From Nitrospirota bacterium (GTDB taxonomy: Bacteria > Nitrospirota > Nitrospiria > SBBL01 > JAADHI01), in contig JAJDBV010000077.1 in NCBI GenBank assembly GCA_029261165.1, positions 1-41,457 of the forward strand: a stretch of 41,457 bases of DNA, given 5' to 3'. The position numbers and the translations under genes are program-made. Under the pieces are notes generated by a model, which was given only the letters and a program-made list of their open reading frames with translations, made no database searches and was not told where the DNA came from. This document shows positions 15,188-41,069 of the stretch, piece by piece (within the stretch, counting starts at the first letter, position 1; every line of letters starts with the position of its first letter).

Positions 15188-16711
15188 GTGAAGAAGCTGT
15201 TATTTTTTATTTCATGGATGATGTTAGTAACGACCGGGGTTTCCGCGCAGACCCTGGCCGATCGCGTCATTGAGCATACGCTTTCTAACGGCCTGAGGGT
15301 CCTAATGGTTGAGCGCCATCAGGTACCGACGATCTCTTTTCGCATCATTTACAATGTCGGGTCTGTCAATGAAGTCAGCGGGATTACCGGCGTGGCCCAT
15401 CTCTATGAACACATGGCGTTTAAAGGAACCCGAACCCTCGGGACCTCTGACTTCGAAAAAGAAGAAAAGGTCTTGGCCCGGATTGAGCGTTTGAACGATG
15501 AGATCCTGCTTGAAACGCGGAAAGGGAGTGCGGCGGATTCGGAACGCTTAAAGGCCCTGGAGAAAAAGTTTGTTTTGCTTCAAAAAGAGGCGCGGCAATG
15601 GGTTATCCCGAATGAGCTTGGAGAGATCTACGATCGGAATGGAGCAGCCGGGTTTAATGCCTCAACCGGCCGGGATGTGACCTCTTACATTGTCAGTCTC
15701 CCCGCAAACCGGCTTCCGCTCTGGATCGCCATCGAATCGGATCGGATGACCAACCCGGTCCTACGTGAATTTTATAAGGAGAGAGACGTCGTTCTGGAAG
15801 AACGCCGCAGGAGTGTTGAGACCAACCCCTCCGGCAAGCTGTATGAAACATTTCTCTCAACGGCTTTCGCGGCCCATCCTTACGGTTATCCCACGCTTGG
15901 CTGGCCTTCAGATGTCAGGTCCCTGTCCGCCACACAGACGGCCCTCTTCTACAAGACCTACTATGGGCCAAATAATACAATCATTGCCATGGTTGGTGAT
16001 TTTAAGGCAGCGGAAGTTATTCCCCTTTTAGAGGCTTCTTTCGGCACGATCCCTTCCGGTCCGCTACCACCAAGGGTGGTGACCGTAGAGCCCCCGCAGC
16101 GGGGTGAGCGCCGGGTGGAAGTTGAGGATGAAGCCAACCCCAGCGTCGTCATCGGGTACCATAAACCCAACCTGCACCACCCGGATGATGCTGTCTTTGA
16201 TGTGATTGATTCGCTGCTCTCCAGGGGGCGGACCTCTCGGCTCTATAAGAAATTGGTTAAGGAAAAGCAAATTGCGGTCAGTGTATCGAGCAGCGCCGGG
16301 ACCCCCGGCGCACGCTATACGAGTCTTTTTACAATCTCCGCGACTCCGCGCGCCCCACATACCACCTTAGATTTGGAGGAGGCGATCTATGCCGTACTCG
16401 AGCGTTTGAAAACGGAACCGCCCACTGAAAAAGAACTTCAGAAGGTCATCACAAATATCGACGCCTCCTTGATCCGTTCTCTTAGGTCGAATAGCGGTCT
16501 TGCAGGCCGGCTTTCCTATTTTGAGGCGGTTGCGGACGATTGGCGCTATACGCTCCGGAACCGGGATGCCATCGCAAAGGTGACTGCTGAAGATGTGATG
16601 CGTGTTGCCCAAACCTATTTTATAAAGAAGAGCCGAACCGTTGCTACCCTGGTTCAACAGGAAAAAAAATCGCGGGGAAAAAATCTGGATGATAAGGAGG
16701 TGGCGCAATGA
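15188..16711 (+). CDS. M16 zinc peptidase, catalytic subunit (pair 1)
   Basis: This is a secreted insulinase/processing-peptidase-type metallopeptidase of 507 residues with a signal peptide ending around V-S-A-Q. The inverted zinc motif is H71-L-Y-E74-H75, and the third ligand glutamate lies in E-R-D-V-V-L-E-E (198-205). Between them is a charged insertion of about 50 residues (about 88-140), so the spacing to the third ligand is much longer than in the paralogue at 31879. GTG 15188 is preceded by AAAGGAG. The stop overlaps the start of the degenerate partner by four bases. The two probably form a periplasmic heterodimer that degrades peptides; the substrate is unknown. Confidence 0.9.
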   Translation: MKKLLFFISWMMLVTTGVSAQTLADRVIEHTLSNGLRVLMVERHQVPTISFRIIYNVGSVNEVSGITGVAHLYEHMAFKGTRTLGTSDFEKEEKVLARIERLNDEILLETRKGSAADSERLKALEKKFVLLQKEARQWVIPNELGEIYDRNGAAGFNASTGRDVTSYIVSLPANRLPLWIAIESDRMTNPVLREFYKERDVVLEERRRSVETNPSGKLYETFLSTAFAAHPYGYPTLGWPSDVRSLSATQTALFYKTYYGPNNTIIAMVGDFKAAEVIPLLEASFGTIPSGPLPPRVVTVEPPQRGERRVEVEDEANPSVVIGYHKPNLHHPDDAVFDVIDSLLSRGRTSRLYKKLVKEKQIAVSVSSSAGTPGARYTSLFTISATPRAPHTTLDLEEAIYAVLERLKTEPPTEKELQKVITNIDASLIRSLRSNSGLAGRLSYFEAVADDWRYTLRNRDAIAKVTAEDVMRVAQTYFIKKSRTVATLVQQEKKSRGKNLDDKEVAQ

Positions 16712-18159
16712 GCTGGGCGATGATGAAAAAGGTGGTCTTGCTCCTCCTGGTCATTTTCCTGCAATCGGCCTGTCTCTCGCTTCATCAGGCGCAGACTCTC
16801 GGGTCCGATTCAACATCCAACCCGAGACGCATGGTTTTTCCCCCTCAGCCCTTTCAACCTCCCAAGGCGGAGCGGATGACCCTCTCAAACGGCATGGTTC
16901 TCTATCTTCTGGAGGACCATGAACTTCCCCTGATCAATCTTCAGATAATGATCCGGACCGGGGATCTCTACGAACCTGCGGACAAGATCGCCCTTGCAGG
17001 AATGACCGGAAGCTTAATGCGGACCGGAGGGACCCGTAATCATCGGGGGGATGAGGTTGACGAGATACTGGACCAGATCGCCGCCGGATTATCAGTCGGG
17101 ATCGGGACCGATTCAGGAGGGGCTTCGCTAGATGTTCTAAAGAAGGATTTTGACTTTGGACTTCAACTGTTGGCCGACATCCTGATGCATCCCGCCTTTG
17201 AGGAGGAAAAACTCACTCTTGCAAAGAACAGGGCGCTGGAGGGAATCCGTCGCCGCAATGACCGAGCCTCTTCGATCGCAAGTCGAGAATTTTGGAAGCA
17301 GCTCTACGGGGCGGACAATCCCTATGCCAGAGAGTCGACTGAAGAGACGGTGAACGCGATCCAACGAAAGGACCTCATTGCCTTTCACCAAAAATATTTC
17401 GCGCCGAACAATATGATGATTGGTGTCACCGGTGATTTTAATAAAAGAGAGATAATCGGAAAAATTGAGAAAGCCTTTGAGGGCTGGGAAAAAAAAGAGA
17501 TCAGCTTCCCGAAGGTCCCGCCGGTCGTTAAGCGGAAAACAGGGGGGGTCTATCACATTCAACGACCGATCCCGCAGACGCAGGTCCGAATCGGCCATCT
17601 TGGGATCAAGCAGGAAAATCCTGACTCTTTTGCCCTGTCGGTCATGAACGATGTGCTCGGTGGAGGAGGGATGGCCAGTCGCCTCTTTTCAGATGTCAGG
17701 AGCCGCCAGGGACTGGCCTATTCGGTCGGGTCTGTTTTTCGACCTGGAAAGCTGGAACAGGGCGTTTTCCTCGCCTATAGCGGAACGCGGGTCGAGTCAA
17801 CCCATCAAGCCATTTCGACCATCATTCAGCACATCGAAAAGGTCCGTAAGGAACCCGTTTTGGACGAAGAGCTCAAGCGTGCCAAGGAGGCTTTTCTCAA
17901 CTCTTTTATCTTTTCTTTTTCGAGCCCGTCTCAGATTGTGGGTCAGCAGATGTCGCTGGAATATTACGGTCTCCCGTCTGATTATCTGGAGCAATACCGG
18001 GACAATGTTGCAAAGGTCACGAAAGCCGATGTCTTGCGGGTTGCCAGGGAATACCTTCACCCGGACCGCCTGGTGATTCTGGCCGTCGGAGACGAAACCC
18101 AGTTTGACCAAGCCCTATCGACCTTGGGCAAGGTTGAGCGAATCCAAGTGGGGCCGTAG
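16708..18159 (+). CDS. M16 peptidase-like partner lacking the zinc motif, lipoprotein (pair 1)
   Basis: This 483-residue M16 fold protein has the H-x-x-E-H zinc motif replaced (A-G-M-T-G-S-L-M-R-T-G-G-T in the equivalent place), so it should be catalytically inactive. A lipoprotein signal ends L-Q-S-A-C (Cys22), which would anchor it in a membrane facing the periplasm. The C-terminal half keeps the R/Y block (S-R-L-F...G-L-A-Y-S-V) that in active pairs contributes to the substrate site. GGAGG lies seven bases before ATG 16708, which overlaps the catalytic gene's TGA. Active and inactive M16 subunits are commonly paired like this, as in mitochondrial processing peptidase. Confidence 0.9.
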   Translation: MSWAMMKKVVLLLLVIFLQSACLSLHQAQTLGSDSTSNPRRMVFPPQPFQPPKAERMTLSNGMVLYLLEDHELPLINLQIMIRTGDLYEPADKIALAGMTGSLMRTGGTRNHRGDEVDEILDQIAAGLSVGIGTDSGGASLDVLKKDFDFGLQLLADILMHPAFEEEKLTLAKNRALEGIRRRNDRASSIASREFWKQLYGADNPYARESTEETVNAIQRKDLIAFHQKYFAPNNMMIGVTGDFNKREIIGKIEKAFEGWEKKEISFPKVPPVVKRKTGGVYHIQRPIPQTQVRIGHLGIKQENPDSFALSVMNDVLGGGGMASRLFSDVRSRQGLAYSVGSVFRPGKLEQGVFLAYSGTRVESTHQAISTIIQHIEKVRKEPVLDEELKRAKEAFLNSFIFSFSSPSQIVGQQMSLEYYGLPSDYLEQYRDNVAKVTKADVLRVAREYLHPDRLVILAVGDETQFDQALSTLGKVERIQVGP

Positions 18160-31878: not shown

Positions 31879-33249
31879 GTGCGTGTTAAGCTGAAACCTA
31901 TCAATCGCTTCTCATATTTGCTTGTACTCCTCTCTGTTTTATGGGGCTTTATCCCGAAGCTTGGGGCCAGCCAGGTCCAGAAATTTCAATTGGACAATGG
32001 TTTGACCGTGATTCTCCTGGAGGAGCATAAGGCCCCGGTGGTCACCTTCCAGATCTGGTACAAGGTGGGTTCCCGGAATGAAACGAACGGAAAAACCGGC
32101 CTTTCTCATCTCACAGAACATATGATGTTCAAGGGGACCACCCAGGTCGGGAAGGGGGAATTTTCTCGAATCGTCGCAAAGAACGGCGGGACGGAGAACG
32201 CTTTTACCGGAAACGATTACACGGCCTATTTTGAGAATTTTTCTGCCGATCGCATCGCGCTTTCCCTCAAGCTGGAGTCCGACCGGATGCAGAACCTGCT
32301 GATCGATGAGAAAGAATTCCAAATGGAACGCGCCGTTGTAAAGGAGGAACGGCGGACACGCACGGATGACGACCCCTATTCCTATCTGATTGAAAGTCTC
32401 TACGCCATTTCGTTTTTAGTCCATCCCTACCATTTTCCCGTGATTGGCTGGATGAGCGACCTCGATGCCCTGGTTCGGGACGATGTTGTTCACTTCTACA
32501 AACGGTATTATGTCCCCAATAATGCAACCATCGTTATGGTGGGGGATTTTCAGTCGGAGCGAGTCATCGAGAAAATTCGGGAGGCGTTCGGAAAGATCTC
32601 AAAAGGTCCCGATCCGCCGCAGGCGGTTTCACAGGAGCCAACTCAGCAAGGCGAGCGGCGGATTGTTGTGAAACGTGAGGCGCAGCTTCCTTTTGTCTTC
32701 ATCGGTTTCCATACCCCGAACCACCAGAGTCCGGATACCTACGCCCTGACGGTTCTCTCTAATATTCTTTCATCCGGTAAGAGTTCCCGTCTCTACCGAA
32801 GCCTTGTCTACCAGCAACAGATCGCGCTTGAGGCCGGTGGATATTATGACGGACTGACGACGGACCCGGAGCTTTTTTATCTTTACGCAACGGCCCAGTC
32901 TGGTAAAAAACCAGAGGCAGTGGAGAAGGCACTCAAGGATGAAATTGTGCGGCTTCAAAAAGATCTTGTTTCGGAATCTGAATTGAAGAAGGTGAAGAAC
33001 CAGATTGAGGCGGAATATATTATGGGTTCTGATTCTAATTTTTTCAGGGCGATGCAGATCGGAACGGCTGAAACGGTTGGTGCCGGTTATCAGTATGTCC
33101 TGGACTATGTTGACAACATTCGGAAAGTGACCTCAGGCGATGTCCGACGGATTGCCCAGAAATACCTCAAGGGAGATGCCCGAAGTGTTGGGATTCTCTT
33201 GCCCTTGAACTCTAAAATCCCTGCTGCGGATTCGGAAGAAGGATCTTGA
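31879..33249 (+). CDS. M16 zinc peptidase, catalytic subunit (pair 2)
   Basis: This secreted M16 metallopeptidase of 456 residues has an N-terminal signal sequence (to about L-G-A-S). The inverted motif is H77-L-T-E80-H81, and the third ligand glutamate falls in M-E-R-A-V-V-K-E-E (149-157), with the usual spacing of about 76 residues. It lacks the long insertion of the first-pair catalytic subunit. The start is GTG 31879 with only a weak ribosome binding site. The stop TGA overlaps the ATG of the degenerate partner by one base (TGATG). The expected role is periplasmic peptide degradation. Confidence 0.92.
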   Translation: MRVKLKPINRFSYLLVLLSVLWGFIPKLGASQVQKFQLDNGLTVILLEEHKAPVVTFQIWYKVGSRNETNGKTGLSHLTEHMMFKGTTQVGKGEFSRIVAKNGGTENAFTGNDYTAYFENFSADRIALSLKLESDRMQNLLIDEKEFQMERAVVKEERRTRTDDDPYSYLIESLYAISFLVHPYHFPVIGWMSDLDALVRDDVVHFYKRYYVPNNATIVMVGDFQSERVIEKIREAFGKISKGPDPPQAVSQEPTQQGERRIVVKREAQLPFVFIGFHTPNHQSPDTYALTVLSNILSSGKSSRLYRSLVYQQQIALEAGGYYDGLTTDPELFYLYATAQSGKKPEAVEKALKDEIVRLQKDLVSESELKKVKNQIEAEYIMGSDSNFFRAMQIGTAETVGAGYQYVLDYVDNIRKVTSGDVRRIAQKYLKGDARSVGILLPLNSKIPAADSEEGS

Positions 33250-34619
33250 TGTACACTTGGAAAAAACATTTCTTTCCTGGTCTTTTCTACCTCTTGATCC
33301 TTCAATTTTTATTGTCTTTTTCTTTCGGCGATGAAGCCATGGGCGCTGAGCTGAAACCGATTCGAGTGGTGACCCCAAATGGGATGACCCTGCTCGTTGT
33401 GGCGCAGCACTCACTTCCGATCGTGAGTGTGGAGGTTCTTGTCCAGTCTGGATCTCTTTATGATCCGGCCGGGAAGCCCGGCCTGTCCAACCTCACCGCC
33501 GGTCTCCTGGATGAGGGAACGGCGGGACGAAGTGCCCTGGAAATTACTGATGCGCTTGCTGCCGTCGGGGCACGTCTTTCCGTCCGGGCCAGCTACGACT
33601 ATGTCACGGCGGGCTTAAGGGTCTTGAAAAAAGATGTCGAGACCGGTTTTGACCTTCTTTCCGACATCCTCGTCCATCCGGTCTTTGATTCCAGCGAGTT
33701 TAAACGGGTTCGGACTATCATCCTTGGCGAAATCCAGGCTGAAAAAGATCAACCTCATGCGATTGCCAGACAGGCCTTTCGTAAGATAACCTTTGGCAGC
33801 CATCCTTATTACCATCCGGTCAAGGGATTTGAGGAGAGTCTTCCGGAGATTAAACAGGCCGACCTTGTTTCATTCCATCGCAAACATTATCGTCCGAATA
33901 ACGCCATTATTTCGATCGTTGGGGATGTCACGCTGCAGGAGGCGGAGGTCCTGGTTCAAAAATATTTCGGAAAATGGAAAAAGGGGACGCTTGACCCTCC
34001 GAAAATTGAGCCGGCCCATGCGCTTCGATCAAAAAAAGTTAGGAAGATTGAAAAGGATCTGAGTCAGGCGACCGTAATTTTGGGTCATGTCGGCATCAAA
34101 CGCACAAATCCCGACTATTACGCCGTCCGTGTGATGAATTACATCCTGGGAGGCGGCGGTTTTTCTTCACGCATGATGCGTGAGATTCGTGATAATCAAG
34201 GGCTGGTCTATTCGATCTATTCCAGTTTTTCAGGGAATCAGGATCCAGGCCCGTTTTCTGTGACCTTTCAGACAGAAAATGGCAATGCCCGCAAGGCTAT
34301 TGAGGGGATTCTGTTGGAAATCAATCGGATTCGAGAAGAAGATGTGAGCAAGGAGGAACTTTCCGAAGCAAAGGCCTACCTGGTGGGAAGTTTTCCCCTC
34401 CGGATGGATACGACACGGAAGGTGGCGTCGCTCCTTCCACAAATCGAATTCCACAACCTGGGCCTTCATTACCTCAAAGAGTATGCAGAATTGATCAACC
34501 GTGTTACGGTAAACGATGTCCGTCGTGTGGCGAAAAAGTACCTCCACCCGGACCATTACGCCCTCGTTCTCGTCGGGAGGCAGAAAGAAATCGGACTGGA
34601 AGGATCGATAGAACAATAG
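33249..34619 (+). CDS. M16 peptidase-like partner lacking the zinc motif (pair 2)
   Basis: This 456-residue M16 fold protein has L-S-N-L-T-A-G-L-L-D-E-G-T where the active partner has H-x-x-E-H, so it should be inactive. A hydrophobic N-terminal segment (F-F-P-G-L-F-Y-L-L-I-L-Q-F-L-L) is a signal peptide, but with no lipobox Cys, unlike the partner in pair 1. The C-terminal G-L-V-Y-S-I-Y-S block is kept. ATG 33249 overlaps the stop of the catalytic gene and has AAGGA upstream. An in-frame TTG one codon earlier also exists. larE follows after eight bases. Confidence 0.92.
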   Translation: MYTWKKHFFPGLFYLLILQFLLSFSFGDEAMGAELKPIRVVTPNGMTLLVVAQHSLPIVSVEVLVQSGSLYDPAGKPGLSNLTAGLLDEGTAGRSALEITDALAAVGARLSVRASYDYVTAGLRVLKKDVETGFDLLSDILVHPVFDSSEFKRVRTIILGEIQAEKDQPHAIARQAFRKITFGSHPYYHPVKGFEESLPEIKQADLVSFHRKHYRPNNAIISIVGDVTLQEAEVLVQKYFGKWKKGTLDPPKIEPAHALRSKKVRKIEKDLSQATVILGHVGIKRTNPDYYAVRVMNYILGGGGFSSRMMREIRDNQGLVYSIYSSFSGNQDPGPFSVTFQTENGNARKAIEGILLEINRIREEDVSKEELSEAKAYLVGSFPLRMDTTRKVASLLPQIEFHNLGLHYLKEYAELINRVTVNDVRRVAKKYLHPDHYALVLVGRQKEIGLEGSIEQ

Positions 34620-36277: not shown

Positions 36278-36646
36278 ATGATTCACGGAGACTTACAAAC
36301 GGCAAGAGCCCACTTTTTCAAGGCTCTGGGCGACCGTACGCGGCTTGATATCCTGAAGATGCTAAGTGGAGAGAAGCGGTGCAGCGTCACGGAGATCTAC
36401 CAAAAGCTTGGCCATGCCCAGAACCTCGTTTCACATCATCTGATCTGTCTTAAGAACTGTGGTCTGGTCACCGCCGAAAAGAAGGGAAAACAAGTGTATT
36501 ACCGGCTCCGGAACAAAAAGGTCCTCAAGCTGCTTGATTTTACCGACCGCTACATCAGGGATGTCCTGGAGAGTGTATTGTTTTGCGAAGTTGTTTCCGA
36601 AGATAATCGCGGTCGGCCTCGACGGGGGAGATCGATCAGCGCCTGA
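36278..36646 (+). CDS. ArsR/SmtB metal-responsive repressor, CmtR-like
   Basis: This 122-residue winged-helix repressor has the H-A-Q-N-L-V-S-H-H-L DNA-recognition helix. Cysteines 57 and 61 (L-I-C-L-K-N-C-G-L-V) sit in this helix and a third at 103 follows in the C-terminal helix. That arrangement and numbering closely match Mycobacterium CmtR, which senses Cd(II) and Pb(II) through Cys57, Cys61 and Cys102. The arsenic-type motif E-L-C-V-C is absent. A related thiophilic ion such as Hg(II) may also be the inducer. It is probably autorepressed from the operator upstream and heads a three-gene operon. Confidence 0.9.
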   Translation: MIHGDLQTARAHFFKALGDRTRLDILKMLSGEKRCSVTEIYQKLGHAQNLVSHHLICLKNCGLVTAEKKGKQVYYRLRNKKVLKLLDFTDRYIRDVLESVLFCEVVSEDNRGRPRRGRSISA

Positions 36647-36673
36647 TAAAGATCTGAGGTTGGAGAGAACACG

Positions 36674-36898
36674 ATGGCAGGGAGGCGTTCAAATGGTCTA
36701 TTTAAAGTCGGAATTTTCGGGTCAGCGATTGCCGCCGTCTGCTGTTTTACGCCGGTACTCGTGATTGGATTGAGCGCCGTTGGACTCGGGATATTGATCG
36801 CATACCTTGATTATGTCCTGCTGCCCGCACTTATCATCTTCATCGGGATTACGATTTATGCCATGACGCGAAGAAATCTAGAAGTGGGGCATGACTAG
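36674..36898 (+). CDS. merF: MerF-like small mercury transport protein
   Basis: This 74-residue inner-membrane protein has two TM helices (about 12-38 and 45-65). The first carries the vicinal pair C23-C24 in V-C-C-F-T-P-V-L-V, and the segment Y-L-D-Y-V-L-L-P-A-L matches MerF closely. MerF normally also has a second Cys pair near its C-terminus to pass Hg(II) to MerA; here the tail R-R-N-L-E-V-G-H-D has none. GGAGAG lies upstream of ATG 36674. It lies between the repressor and the AhpD-like gene, and its stop overlaps the latter's start. Confidence 0.85.
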   Translation: MAGRRSNGLFKVGIFGSAIAAVCCFTPVLVIGLSAVGLGILIAYLDYVLLPALIIFIGITIYAMTRRNLEVGHD

Positions 36899-37292
36899 AA
36901 TGAATGAAATCAGGGCAAAAGAGGAATCCCTTTTTTCCGAAATGCGGAGGCTTAGCCCAAAGGTCACCGGTGGGATCATGCGGGCGCGTAAAGCCTCCTA
37001 CGAAGAAGGCAAGGTTGCTTCCAGATATAAGTTGCTCACAGCCATGACCATTTCCATCGCACTGCGTTGCGAGCCGTGCATACGGGCCTATGTGAAAATG
37101 GCGCTGGATAAAGGGGCGAGCCAGGAAGAATTCATCGAATTCCTAAACGTGGCCATGACGATGCAGGGTTGTCCCGGGGAAGAATGGGCATTAAAGGCCT
37201 ATACCTTCTATAAAGAGTTTTCCTCAGGACAAACCGGGGAGGTCACGACGTCCTGCTGCCCAACACACGAGCGTAAGAAGGAAGTGGACTGA
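36891..37292 (+). CDS. AhpD / carboxymuconolactone-decarboxylase-fold protein with a Cys-rich tail
   Basis: This 133-residue protein of the CMD/AhpD-like family has the redox motif C60-E-P-C63 in A-L-R-C-E-P-C-I-R-A-Y and the M-Q-G-C-P-G-E-E-W segment typical of the metal-resistance subset. Beyond the fold it ends with a vicinal C122-C123 (T-S-C-C-P-T-H). Its ATG overlaps the merF-like stop by eight bases; an ATG at 36900 is a second option. In the family such proteins act as thiol-disulfide enzymes. A role in Hg or metal detoxification is inferred from the operon. Confidence 0.85.
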   Translation: MTRMNEIRAKEESLFSEMRRLSPKVTGGIMRARKASYEEGKVASRYKLLTAMTISIALRCEPCIRAYVKMALDKGASQEEFIEFLNVAMTMQGCPGEEWALKAYTFYKEFSSGQTGEVTTSCCPTHERKKEVD

Positions 37293-38061: not shown

Positions 38062-38424
38062 ATGATGAAAAAGAAACGAGATACGATGGTAAGCCGTTTT
38101 TTTGTGATGCTCTTTATTCTTCTTTTTGCGGGCCAGCACTCGGTAATATGTTGGAGCGCGTCTTCATTTCAGTCATCTGGAGAATCCCGCACCTCCGTCG
38201 AAGGTCGTCACACCGATGCCGCTGGCGCTCACACAGATGCAACATCCATGGAGACCGACTGTACCCAGCCTTGCCACCTCACCCCAATGAAAACACCCCG
38301 TTTGGCATTGAATACATCTTATAGTCCAGGAATAAACAAGGCCCTTCAAGAGGCCTTTTCCAAAGAAGAGGTTATTGCCTCTGTCTTTCACCCCCCTCGC
38401 TTCGTGTCATCCTCCAGTACTTAA
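38062..38424 (+). CDS. Small secreted protein with paired cysteines, unknown
   Basis: This 120-residue protein has a signal sequence (F-F-V-M-L-F-I-L-L-F-A-G). The mature part is His- and Thr-rich, with a C-T-Q-P-C-H-L-T-P segment whose C-x-x-x-C-H is not a standard heme motif. It ends H-P-P-R-F-V-S-S-S-S-T. No family is recognised. The ATG at 38062 follows the repeat element by seven bases and has only a weak GGGA upstream. Its position, 79 bases before a tetraheme cytochrome, suggests an accessory role in metal or electron transfer, but this is a guess. Confidence 0.5.
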   Translation: MMKKKRDTMVSRFFVMLFILLFAGQHSVICWSASSFQSSGESRTSVEGRHTDAAGAHTDATSMETDCTQPCHLTPMKTPRLALNTSYSPGINKALQEAFSKEEVIASVFHPPRFVSSSST

Positions 38425-38503
38425 ATACACTTACTTTTATCTCATCTGTTCCCAAAGAAGCGGTCTATTACTCCTTGGGAAAAATGCTTGGGAGGAAAGT
38501 TAA

Positions 38504-39877
38504 ATGAACGAATCTTTTTTATGTAAGACGTTCTACGCGATCGTTCTGTCAGCTCAAATTATTTTAACATCGGGTCATGCTTTGGCATTGGACAGGACTA
38601 ATGAGGACGCTGACCTTGGAAAAGTTCTGGTCGAGAAGATCGGCTGTCTGAATTGTCATGCCATTGACGGAAAAGGAGGAACGGTCGCTCCAGATCTCAG
38701 CCATGCCCATGAACGTCTCCATGAGGATTGGCTGATCCGATTTCTTAAAAAGCCTTACGTCATTCGCCCCTTGGGCTATATCCCATACAGCGGGGTACAG
38801 ATGCCGAATCTTCGTCTTTCGGATCAAGAAGCAGAAAAAATAGCGCATTACCTTTCTACACTGAAAAAAGTAGAAATTGAAAGACGCACGGCACTGGCTT
38901 TACGTCTCAATGACCCTGAAGGCCTGGAAGAAGATATCGAAAAAGGGAGAAGGCTGTTTGCAAGACTTCCCTGTTTAAATTGCCATACCATAACAGGAGG
39001 AAAAAGAAGGCTGATCGCACCAGACCTTTCGGATATCGGGACCCGTCTCCAAGCCGAATTCCTTTACCTATGGATCGAAAATCCACAGGCCTTTGAGCCG
39101 AAGACCATCATGCCGAACTTTGGTCTTAAGGATAAGCAGCTTTTCCCGATGACGAGATATTTAATGTCTCTGAAAAGTGAACTTCCATCGTCGCTGGACG
39201 AGACGCCGTCCGCAAGGCTCCCCTTCGGGCCGATGCGTGTTGCCAAAGCAGAGCGGCTCTTTCGGGATCTCTGTATTCGTTGCCATACCCTGGATGGTCG
39301 GGGAGGGCAGACTGGGCCTGACCTGAGCTATGAAGGGGATAAAGTTAATCGGCGATGGCTCTTTCAATTCCTAAAGAATCCTTACCGTATTCGTCCTTTG
39401 GGTTTTGCACAGAACCCAATTGCAAGGATGCCGAAACTCAGATTAAATGACGATGAGTTGATGATGATGACCGAGTTTATCTCTACGCTCAAAAAAAGAA
39501 GAAATTTGAACCTCCCCATGACGCACGACGTGATGATGTCTAAGAAGATGAATAAGGCGAAGAAACCTGAGATGAGCCGAGAGCGGATGATTGAAATGGG
39601 AAAGATGGTGATCAATATGAAGGGCTGTAGCGGTTGTCATCGTATCGGAAAACTTTCTCTGCAACGGGTGACGATCGGTCCGGATTTGACCTATGCCGGG
39701 GACCGGCTCAAAGAGGAATGGATCTACTCTTGGGTTAAAGATCCTCAGAAATATCGTTCGGAGACCCTCATGCCAAATCTGGGACTCAGCGAAATACAGG
39801 CACGGTCTGTCGCGGCCTATCTATCAGAACGAAAACAAATTCCAAAGGAAAAAGAGGGAGGTTCTCATGAACCGTAA
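38504..39877 (+). CDS. Tetraheme c-type cytochrome, four fused monoheme domains
   Basis: This exported 457-residue cytochrome has a signal peptide (to about L-A-L-D) and four class I heme domains. C-x-x-C-H motifs are at 48-52, 157-161, 257-261 and 375-379. Each is followed about 45-50 residues later by an axial Met (M100, M203, M309, M423) in M-P-N-L/F or M-P-K-L. Domains 1 and 3 share an R-P-L-G insertion before the Met, and domains 2 and 4 are shorter, so the protein reads A-B-A-B. GGGAGG lies upstream of ATG 38504. It overlaps the next gene by 11 bases. It probably carries electrons in the periplasm. Confidence 0.95.
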   Translation: MNESFLCKTFYAIVLSAQIILTSGHALALDRTNEDADLGKVLVEKIGCLNCHAIDGKGGTVAPDLSHAHERLHEDWLIRFLKKPYVIRPLGYIPYSGVQMPNLRLSDQEAEKIAHYLSTLKKVEIERRTALALRLNDPEGLEEDIEKGRRLFARLPCLNCHTITGGKRRLIAPDLSDIGTRLQAEFLYLWIENPQAFEPKTIMPNFGLKDKQLFPMTRYLMSLKSELPSSLDETPSARLPFGPMRVAKAERLFRDLCIRCHTLDGRGGQTGPDLSYEGDKVNRRWLFQFLKNPYRIRPLGFAQNPIARMPKLRLNDDELMMMTEFISTLKKRRNLNLPMTHDVMMSKKMNKAKKPEMSRERMIEMGKMVINMKGCSGCHRIGKLSLQRVTIGPDLTYAGDRLKEEWIYSWVKDPQKYRSETLMPNLGLSEIQARSVAAYLSERKQIPKEKEGGSHEP

Positions 39878-41069
39878 ACCGATGCTGCTGTTTCTGATTC
39901 TAATATTCCTGGATGTGTTCATCCTCTCAGTCCGGCCAAGCGATGCCATTCCTTCATTTGCGCGGAAATATAACTATGTCTGCACCGTTTGCCATACCAT
40001 GCCGCCCAAGTTGAACAAGTTCGGTCTCACCTTCATGGCCAATGGCTACCAACTCGATGTACAAACCGAGGCAGAGGACAAACTCCAAAAGACAGAATCC
40101 CTATCTCTCCTGAAGGATGTTCCTTTATCTCTCCGTATTATTGCCGACGCGCATTACTCTTTTTTGAAGGGTCAGCCGCGAACCGACCTCCATTTCCCAG
40201 AGGGCGTGATCCTTTATTCGGCCGGGAGTCTCACCGACCGACTCTCATTTTGGGTAAGTGGGGAACCTTTCCTTGACGAGTCGCTTGATGAGATATTTAT
40301 AAAGTTTCTTGTTGATTATGAGTCCCCTTACTTGACGGTAAAGTTGATCAAGGCAGGTCAGTTTGGCATGAGAGACTACCTTAACTTTGCGAGTGGCCGA
40401 AACTTTACGATTGATAACTACGCCATTCATCAGGCGCGTGTAATGGACGCGAGTGGAGTGGGGAATTCCTTTTCGCTCGGAGTGCCCCAACGGTCGATTG
40501 AACTGCGAGGGATGCTCCCGCGTATGACCATGTGGACCCTCGCCGTCTCGAACGGTCCCGGAAAAGAACCAGGGAAGTTCGATAATAACACTGAAAAGGA
40601 TTATTATCTCCGTCTCCACAAGCTTTTTCTAGGCCAGTATGCCATTGGAGGTTTGGGCTATTGGGGGACAAATGAACTTTCGCCCGGAAAAAAAAACCGC
40701 TTCCAGCGTTATATCATTGACGTGGATCTTGACCACGAACGATTTGATCTGACCGCCTCAATCTTGTTCGGACAAGATAAAGGACTGGAAAGCATTCCTG
40801 GCATTTCATCTTCTTCTGTCAATCACTTCGGTTATTTCATTGAGGCGAACTATCACCTTGCCCGCCTCTGGCATGGACTGGCTCGCTATGACTTTGTCGA
40901 TTCAGACGATGTCTCAGAGAATAGGTTTTCAGACCTTTTTGCCCAGACGGTGACCTTACAGCTCAATCACTTTCATCGTCTGAATTTACGATTCATTTCT
41001 GAGGTGGTCATCGATCTTTCGGAGAAAGATGCTCATATCTTCAGGGTTGGAATTGATTTTTCCCTTTAG
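39867..41069 (+). CDS. Cyc2-like fused monoheme cytochrome-porin
   Basis: This 400-residue outer-membrane protein has a signal peptide (to about S-D-A) followed by A-I-P-S-F-A-R-K-Y, one heme site C39-T-V-C42-H43, and P-K-L-N-K-F-G-L-T-F-M-A-N-G-Y. This N-terminal block closely resembles Cyc2 and related fused cytochrome-porins of iron-oxidising and other bacteria. The rest (about 75-400) shows the alternating hydrophobic/polar strands and terminal aromatic-rich strand of a beta-barrel. ATG 39867, with GAGGGAGG upstream, overlaps the tetraheme gene. The longer frame from 39693 overlaps it deeply. The direction of electron flow is unknown, as is the substrate (iron, manganese or other). Confidence 0.88.
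   Translation: MNRKPMLLFLILIFLDVFILSVRPSDAIPSFARKYNYVCTVCHTMPPKLNKFGLTFMANGYQLDVQTEAEDKLQKTESLSLLKDVPLSLRIIADAHYSFLKGQPRTDLHFPEGVILYSAGSLTDRLSFWVSGEPFLDESLDEIFIKFLVDYESPYLTVKLIKAGQFGMRDYLNFASGRNFTIDNYAIHQARVMDASGVGNSFSLGVPQRSIELRGMLPRMTMWTLAVSNGPGKEPGKFDNNTEKDYYLRLHKLFLGQYAIGGLGYWGTNELSPGKKNRFQRYIIDVDLDHERFDLTASILFGQDKGLESIPGISSSSVNHFGYFIEANYHLARLWHGLARYDFVDSDDVSENRFSDLFAQTVTLQLNHFHRLNLRFISEVVIDLSEKDAHIFRVGIDFSL

What the first reader, a model, noticed from the sequence alone, without database searches (positions are those of the whole stretch)
38504..41069. Tetraheme cytochrome and Cyc2-like porin-cytochrome as one translationally coupled conduit
A periplasmic tetraheme cytochrome and an outer-membrane fused cytochrome-porin overlap by 11 bases. 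Cyc2-type proteins are known to move electrons across the outer membrane in iron oxidisers (established). The sequence shows a heme motif plus barrel in the second protein and four heme-Met domains in the first. That they form a single extracellular electron pathway is inference. Adjacent partners with this exact architecture could mark an uncharacterised chain.
Basis: partly seen in the sequence, partly recalled or inferred. Interest (0 to 1): 0.75.

Follow-up and report, generated by a model that had tools for sequence, protein, structure and literature searches.

The report
Cyc2-type porin-cytochrome with tetraheme partner
Two overlapping genes encode a barrel protein with one heme that can carry electrons through the outer membrane and a four-heme periplasmic protein that probably relays them onward; the barrel belongs to the known Cyc2 family, but this pairing is new and is one version of a much wider, apparently undescribed habit of pairing such barrels with multiheme partners.

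Summary
ORF 38504-39877 encodes an exported protein with four class I cytochrome c domains. ORF 39867-41069, overlapping it by 11 bases and with its own Shine-Dalgarno, encodes a monoheme cytochrome fused to a barrel. The barrel protein meets every sequence criterion published for Cyc2 and is modelled as a 16-strand porin (pTM 0.84). It is very divergent: best relatives share 25-32% identity. No other sampled genome has this pair directly adjacent. The functional link is still supported: in 44 of 61 informative loci from many phyla a Cyc2-like gene directly follows a 4-5 heme cytochrome (background 2%), but of the unrelated c554/ExtKL-like kind; and in Nitrospirota-set and acidobacterial loci Cyc2-like genes share an apparent operon with Rieske/cytochrome b and an octaheme homologous to the window's tetraheme. 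The tetraheme looks like a tandem duplication of a two-heme unit from a cytochrome encoded beside bd-like oxidases in the same order. Most likely: an outer-membrane electron conduit feeding a periplasmic wire. Donor, direction and physical contact are untested. Side observation: the Cyc2 signature makes the mature N-terminus X-P-x-F-A-R, like cytochrome f, suggesting an N-terminal-amine heme ligand.

The parts
38504..39877 (+). P1: exported tetraheme cytochrome, four class I cytochrome c domains (heme CXXCH + Met ligand), alternating A-B-A-B
   Evidence: PF00034 x4, E 2.4e-37; heme positions and domain identities; paralogue of oxidase-linked tetraheme
38504..38587 (+). P1 signal peptide, likely cleavage after GHALA
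   Evidence: read from translation; not tested with a signal-peptide program
38490..38495 (+). Shine-Dalgarno GGGAGG of P1
   Evidence: sequence
39856..39861 (+). Shine-Dalgarno GGGAGG of P2, inside the end of P1
   Evidence: sequence
39867..39877 (+). 11-base overlap of P1 and P2 reading frames
   Evidence: sequence
39867..41069 (+). P2: Cyc2-family fused cytochrome-porin, 400 aa
   Evidence: Cyc2 signature; homologues; model pTM 0.84
39945..39971 (+). Cyc2 signature AIPSFARKY; Ala is the likely -1 residue of signal-peptidase cleavage, mature N-terminus IPSFAR
39981..39995 (+). single heme motif CTVCH of P2
40128..41066 (+). predicted 16-strand outer-membrane beta-barrel of P2
   Evidence: AlphaFold2; Foldseek to OmpU, OmpC/OmpF, OprO porins

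Best explanation
The two genes encode a minimal trans-outer-membrane electron conduit and its periplasmic relay. P2 is a divergent Cyc2-family protein: a 16-strand porin with a short N-terminal monoheme cytochrome domain, probably at the periplasmic mouth, so that a dissolved reductant (Fe(II), perhaps Mn(II) or another small donor) is oxidised in the pore and the electron lands on the heme. P1, a string of four Met-ligated class I hemes made in the same operon, takes the electron from P2 and carries it across the periplasm, most likely to the bd-like terminal-oxidase complexes or a Rieske/cytochrome b complex, whose own cytochromes are P1's closest homologues. Shown here: gene anatomy, Cyc2 signature, predicted barrel, P1's domain structure and ancestry, and cross-phylum genetic linkage of Cyc2-like genes with multiheme cytochromes. 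Inferred: P1-P2 contact, inward direction, the donor, the acceptor.
For: 11-base overlap with good ribosome sites. P2 meets the published Cyc2 criteria and is modelled as a 16-strand porin. P1 is class I tetraheme, homologous to the tetraheme of bd-like oxidase clusters of the same order and to the octaheme of Rieske/cyt b operons. Cyc2-like genes share apparent operons with such Rieske/cyt b/octaheme genes in L180/L189 and four acidobacterial loci, lie two genes from a hexaheme P1 relative in L114, are followed by a diheme cytochrome in relatives of the order, and follow a 4-5 heme cytochrome in 44 of 61 informative named loci. Known precedents place cyc2 next to cyc1 in the rus operon (PMC10654088).
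Against: The exact pair is found in one genome only. P2's nearest relatives (L003-L008 group) lack an adjacent multiheme cytochrome. The usual upstream partner of Cyc2-like genes is of another fold family. No expression, localisation or redox data. The Rieske/cyt b linkage is equally compatible with outward flow.
Confidence: 0.6

Rival explanations
1. The same conduit runs outward: electrons from the quinone pool pass via a Rieske/cytochrome b complex and P1 to P2 and leave the cell to an external acceptor such as Fe(III), Mn(IV) or humics.
For: Cyc2-like genes share apparent operons with Rieske/cytochrome b and a P1-like octaheme; many bearers of Cyc2-like genes are Ignavibacteria, Bacteroidales and other groups not known as iron oxidisers.
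Against: Biochemically characterised Cyc2 proteins oxidise iron; P1's nearest paralogues in the order sit with bd-like oxidases, and the genome has four bd-like proteins.
Confidence: 0.22
2. The two genes are neighbours without being partners: P1 is a spare soluble carrier for the oxidases, and P2 gives its electrons to another cytochrome.
For: The pair is not conserved in any other sampled genome; P1's closest homologues serve oxidase or bc-type clusters.
Against: Overlapping reading frames, and the same gene order (multiheme cytochrome directly upstream of Cyc2-like) evolved with a different cytochrome family in many phyla.
Confidence: 0.12
3. P2 is not a conduit but a redox-gated or sensory porin, for instance for metal uptake or metal stress.
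For: An ArsR/SmtB-family regulator and a CMD-domain protein lie 1-2 kb upstream; the function of most Cyc2-like clades is untested.
Against: The upstream genes have no homologues near Cyc2-like genes in any fetched locus; a tetraheme translated with the porin is hard to explain without electron transfer.
Confidence: 0.06

Closest known systems
Cyc2 fused cytochrome-porin (Acidithiobacillus Cyc2, Mariprofundus Cyc2-PV1, Leptospirillum Cyt572)
   Same: Signal peptide, AXPXFAR[QK][TY], single CXXCH, PXL, at least 365 aa, predicted 16-strand porin with N-terminal cytochrome domain
   Different: Very divergent; directly coupled to a class I tetraheme; cluster and activity unknown
cyc2-cyc1 of the Acidithiobacillus rus operon
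   Same: Cyc2-type porin encoded next to a periplasmic class I-type carrier
   Different: Cyc1 is a diheme c4 downstream of cyc2; here a tetraheme (duplicated two-heme unit) upstream and overlapping
Tetraheme cytochrome of the bd-like oxidase cluster in the same order (L060-L069)
   Same: Both halves of P1 align to its central two-heme unit, 39% identity
   Different: That gene lies with oxidase subunits; P1 is a duplicated unit beside a porin
c554/ExtKL-like 4-5 heme cytochrome + Cyc2-like cassette (Ignavibacteria, Bacteroidales, Calditrichota, KSB1 and others)
   Same: Multiheme cytochrome immediately upstream of a Cyc2-like gene
   Different: Partner of a different family; porin 25-30% identical
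MtrAB/MtoAB/PioAB porin-cytochrome complexes
   Different: 26-strand barrel with a decaheme threaded through it; here 16 strands and one fused heme

Membership tests
Cyc2 fused cytochrome-porin | AXPXFAR[Q/K][T/Y] motif upstream of CXXCH (PMC8406198) | tested here: met
   AIPSFARKY then CTVCH, Arg to first Cys spacing 5 as in all 120 homologues
Cyc2 fused cytochrome-porin | single CXXCH followed by PXL | tested here: met
   CTVCHTMPPKL
Cyc2 fused cytochrome-porin | length at least 365 aa with signal peptide | tested here: met
   400 aa; hydrophobic N-terminus with SDA cleavage site read from sequence; no signal-peptide program available
Cyc2 fused cytochrome-porin | 16-strand porin fused C-terminally | tested here: met
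   16 barrel strands, pTM 0.84; porins and OprO in PDB search. Prediction only
Cyc2 fused cytochrome-porin | placement in Cyc2 Cluster 1, 2 or 3 | not testable with these tools
   no reference Cyc2 sequences or FeGenie models on hand; P2 branch long and weakly placed (row L172)
Cyc2 fused cytochrome-porin | Fe(II) oxidation | not testable with these tools
   needs protein
Class I cytochrome c | CXXCH, C-terminal Met ligand, Cytochrom_C profile in each domain | tested here: met
   four stretches PF00034; MPNLRL, MPNFGL, MPKLRL, MPNLGL
Cyc1 (diheme cytochrome c4) | two heme domains | tested here: not met
   four hemes
MtrAB-type porin-cytochrome complex | 26-strand barrel and decaheme | tested here: not met
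   16 strands, one heme in P2 and four in P1
c554-like plus Cyc2-like cassette | upstream 4-5 heme cytochrome of the PF13435/PF14522 kind | tested here: not met
   P1 is PF00034 x4 and has no phmmer match to those cytochromes

The most novel reading that the evidence does not exclude
Cyc2-family porins are general outer-membrane electron valves with exchangeable multiheme partners (c554-like, class I strings, or octaheme/bc complexes), and the heme of the whole family is ligated by the mature protein's N-terminal amine, as in cytochrome f, which would explain why signal-peptide cleavage and the X-P-x-F-A-R motif are locked together. In the window the partner has been replaced by a duplicated oxidase-type cytochrome.
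Probability: 0.25. Interest if true: 0.72.

Novelty: new variant of a known kind. Interest (0 to 1): 0.5.

Why it matters
Cyc2 is treated as a marker of iron oxidation, yet its periplasmic partner is unknown in most lineages. The pair gives a compact, expressible system in which the first electron hand-over behind a Cyc2-type barrel can be measured. The linkage data suggest that Cyc2-like barrels are paired with multiheme cytochromes of different fold families in many phyla, including groups not known to oxidise iron, so a Cyc2-like gene alone may not indicate iron oxidation. The cytochrome-f-like N-terminus offers a cheap test of what the unexplained Cyc2 signature does and of the sixth heme ligand.

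Tried and rejected
Sequence search of the PDB with P2: no hit. tblastn of P2 against plasmids: none. AlphaFold2 of P1 with six sequences was poor (pLDDT 53, pTM 0.35) and is not used. Conserved operon with the upstream ArsR, CMD and small exported genes: rejected, no homologues in any fetched locus. Foreign origin of the pair: not supported, GC 47.4% against 50.1% for the window with similar GC3. Mtr-type conduit: rejected on strand and heme number. Lys7 or Tyr8 of the signature as side-chain heme ligand: not invariant. No paper in the held library was found that describes the c554-like/Cyc2-like cassette, the Cyc2-like/Rieske/octaheme operon or an N-terminal-amine ligand in Cyc2; that is absence from one library under a few word searches only.

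Full report
Observation. Both genes are real and placed as described. P1 (38504-39877, 457 aa) has a signal peptide, four CXXCH and four MPN/MPK Met motifs, and four Cytochrom_C stretches. P2 starts at ATG 39867, not at the upstream ATG of the mechanical ORF list, and shares 11 bases with P1; it has its own GGGAGG five bases upstream. Coupling by overlap is plausible but not required.

What P2 is. The published definition of Cyc2 (PMC8406198) is a signal peptide, AXPXFAR[Q/K][T/Y] before CXXCH, PXL after it, at least 365 aa, and a 16-strand barrel. P2 has AIPSFARKY, CTVCH, PKL and 400 aa. With an alignment of 72 homologues AlphaFold2 gives 16 barrel strands behind a small helical domain (pLDDT 82, pTM 0.84). 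Foldseek returns general porins (best E 1e-12) and OprO (TM 0.63), the latter a relative reported for Cyc2. So P2 belongs to the family by sequence and predicted fold; activity and cluster are untested. It is very divergent: the best relatives are 25-32% identical over full length, in genomes of the same phylum and in many other phyla, and its branch is long and weakly placed (where P2 is the row L172). The same genome has a second, distant Cyc2-like gene (contig C35).

What P1 is. Its domains alternate, 1 resembling 3 (41%) and 2 resembling 4 (35%), although 1 and 4 also share 35%. Both halves align to one two-heme unit (residues 178-353) of a tetraheme cytochrome that other members of the order encode in a bd-like oxidase cluster. 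P1 is therefore best read as a tandem duplication of that unit (inference). This genome also has the oxidase-linked gene itself, apparently split over the ends of contigs C85 and C62, next to two Proton_antipo_M subunits, a bd-like subunit, further cytochromes and a Rieske protein. Four bd-like proteins and no heme-copper oxidase were detected.

Is the pairing meaningful? The exact pair was found only here. Other lines support a functional link. (a) In 44 of 61 informative named loci from many phyla, a same-strand cytochrome with four or more hemes directly precedes the Cyc2-like gene, against 11 of 483 other ORFs; these loci are related by descent (one change on the tree), so the binomial value is not an independent test. 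That partner is of the c554/ExtKL-like kind and not similar to P1. (b) In one genome of the same phylum (L180/L189) and four acidobacterial loci (L102, L126, L133, L148), an apparent operon runs Cyc2-like, plastocyanin-like, flavin/Fe-S oxidoreductase, Rieske, cytochrome b, second b part, multiheme; in L180 the last is an octaheme with which P1 aligns over 433 residues at E 1e-58. Pfam was run on L189/L180 and L126; the other three were matched by gene sizes and order. (c) A zixibacterial locus (L114) has a hexaheme relative of P1 downstream of a Cyc2-like gene, two genes between them. (d) Within the order, other Cyc2-like genes are followed by a two-heme cytochrome. The reading that fits all this is a barrel with exchangeable periplasmic multiheme partners.

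Mechanism. Most likely P2 takes electrons from a dissolved donor in its pore and passes them to P1, and P1 to bd-like oxidase complexes or a Rieske/cytochrome b complex. Inward direction rests on characterised Cyc2 proteins and on the Mn and Fe proposals for 'Ca. Troglogloeales' (PMC9040806). Outward flow remains a serious rival because of the Rieske/cytochrome b linkage.

Side observation. In all 120 distinct homologues collected, the residue two before the motif's Pro is Ala, 119 of 120 fit the -3/-1 signal-peptidase rule, and the spacing from the motif's Arg to the first heme Cys is always five. Eighty of these were selected on AIP[SA]FARKY; the rest were not, and they behave the same. Cleavage would leave X-P-x-F-A-R at the mature N-terminus. 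Cytochrome f has mature Y-P-I-F-A-Q (solved chains begin there), and there, from established knowledge, the N-terminal amine is the sixth heme ligand. No Met, His, Lys, Tyr or Cys outside CXXCH is invariant in the P2 heme domain across the homologues. I propose, without direct evidence, that Cyc2 hemes may be ligated by the N-terminal amine. The two proteins are otherwise unrelated (the Cys lies at residue 12 in one, 21 in the other), so this would be convergence.

Verdict. The gene-level observation is confirmed; the single-chain interpretation is likely but only partly supported; the family is known, the pairing is a new variant.

Noticed in passing
L076, L083, L084, L089, L145 and 39 other loci among L074-L153: A two-gene cassette of a c554/ExtKL-like 4-5 heme cytochrome (~450 aa) directly upstream of a Cyc2-like porin-cytochrome (~395 aa), spread over Ignavibacteriota, Bacteroidota, Calditrichota, KSB1, Zixibacteria, Krumholzibacteriota, Latescibacterota and others; no description found in the held papers.
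   Followed up: partly
L180/L189, L102, L126, L133, L148: Apparent operon of Cyc2-like porin, plastocyanin-like protein, GltD-like flavin/Fe-S oxidoreductase, Rieske, cytochrome b and a multiheme (octaheme in L180), shared by one genome of the window's phylum and acidobacteria.
   Followed up: partly
39945-39971 and homologues: The Cyc2 signature coincides with the signal-peptidase site, giving a mature N-terminus X-P-x-F-A-R like that of cytochrome f (Y-P-I-F-A-Q), whose N-terminal amine ligates the heme.
   Followed up: partly
L002/L056 (same genome, contig C35): Second, distant Cyc2-like gene (381 aa) without an adjacent cytochrome gene.
   Followed up: partly
L177 (same genome, contig C62): bd-like oxidase cluster with two Proton_antipo_M subunits, an EB_dh (heme b) protein, several class I cytochromes and a Rieske protein, resembling the published TO complexes of 'Ca. 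Manganitrophaceae' but present in several families of the order.
   Followed up: partly
38062-38424: Small exported 120-aa ORF with CTQPCH (a CX3CH spacing), just upstream of P1; no homologues in the fetched loci.
   Followed up: no
36278-37292: ArsR/SmtB-family regulator followed by a CMD-domain protein (nearest NCBIfam model: arsenosugar biosynthesis-associated peroxidase-like); possible metal or arsenic response genes upstream of the pair.
   Followed up: no
15188-18159 and 31879-34619: Two separate pairs of adjacent M16 peptidase genes in one window.
   Followed up: no
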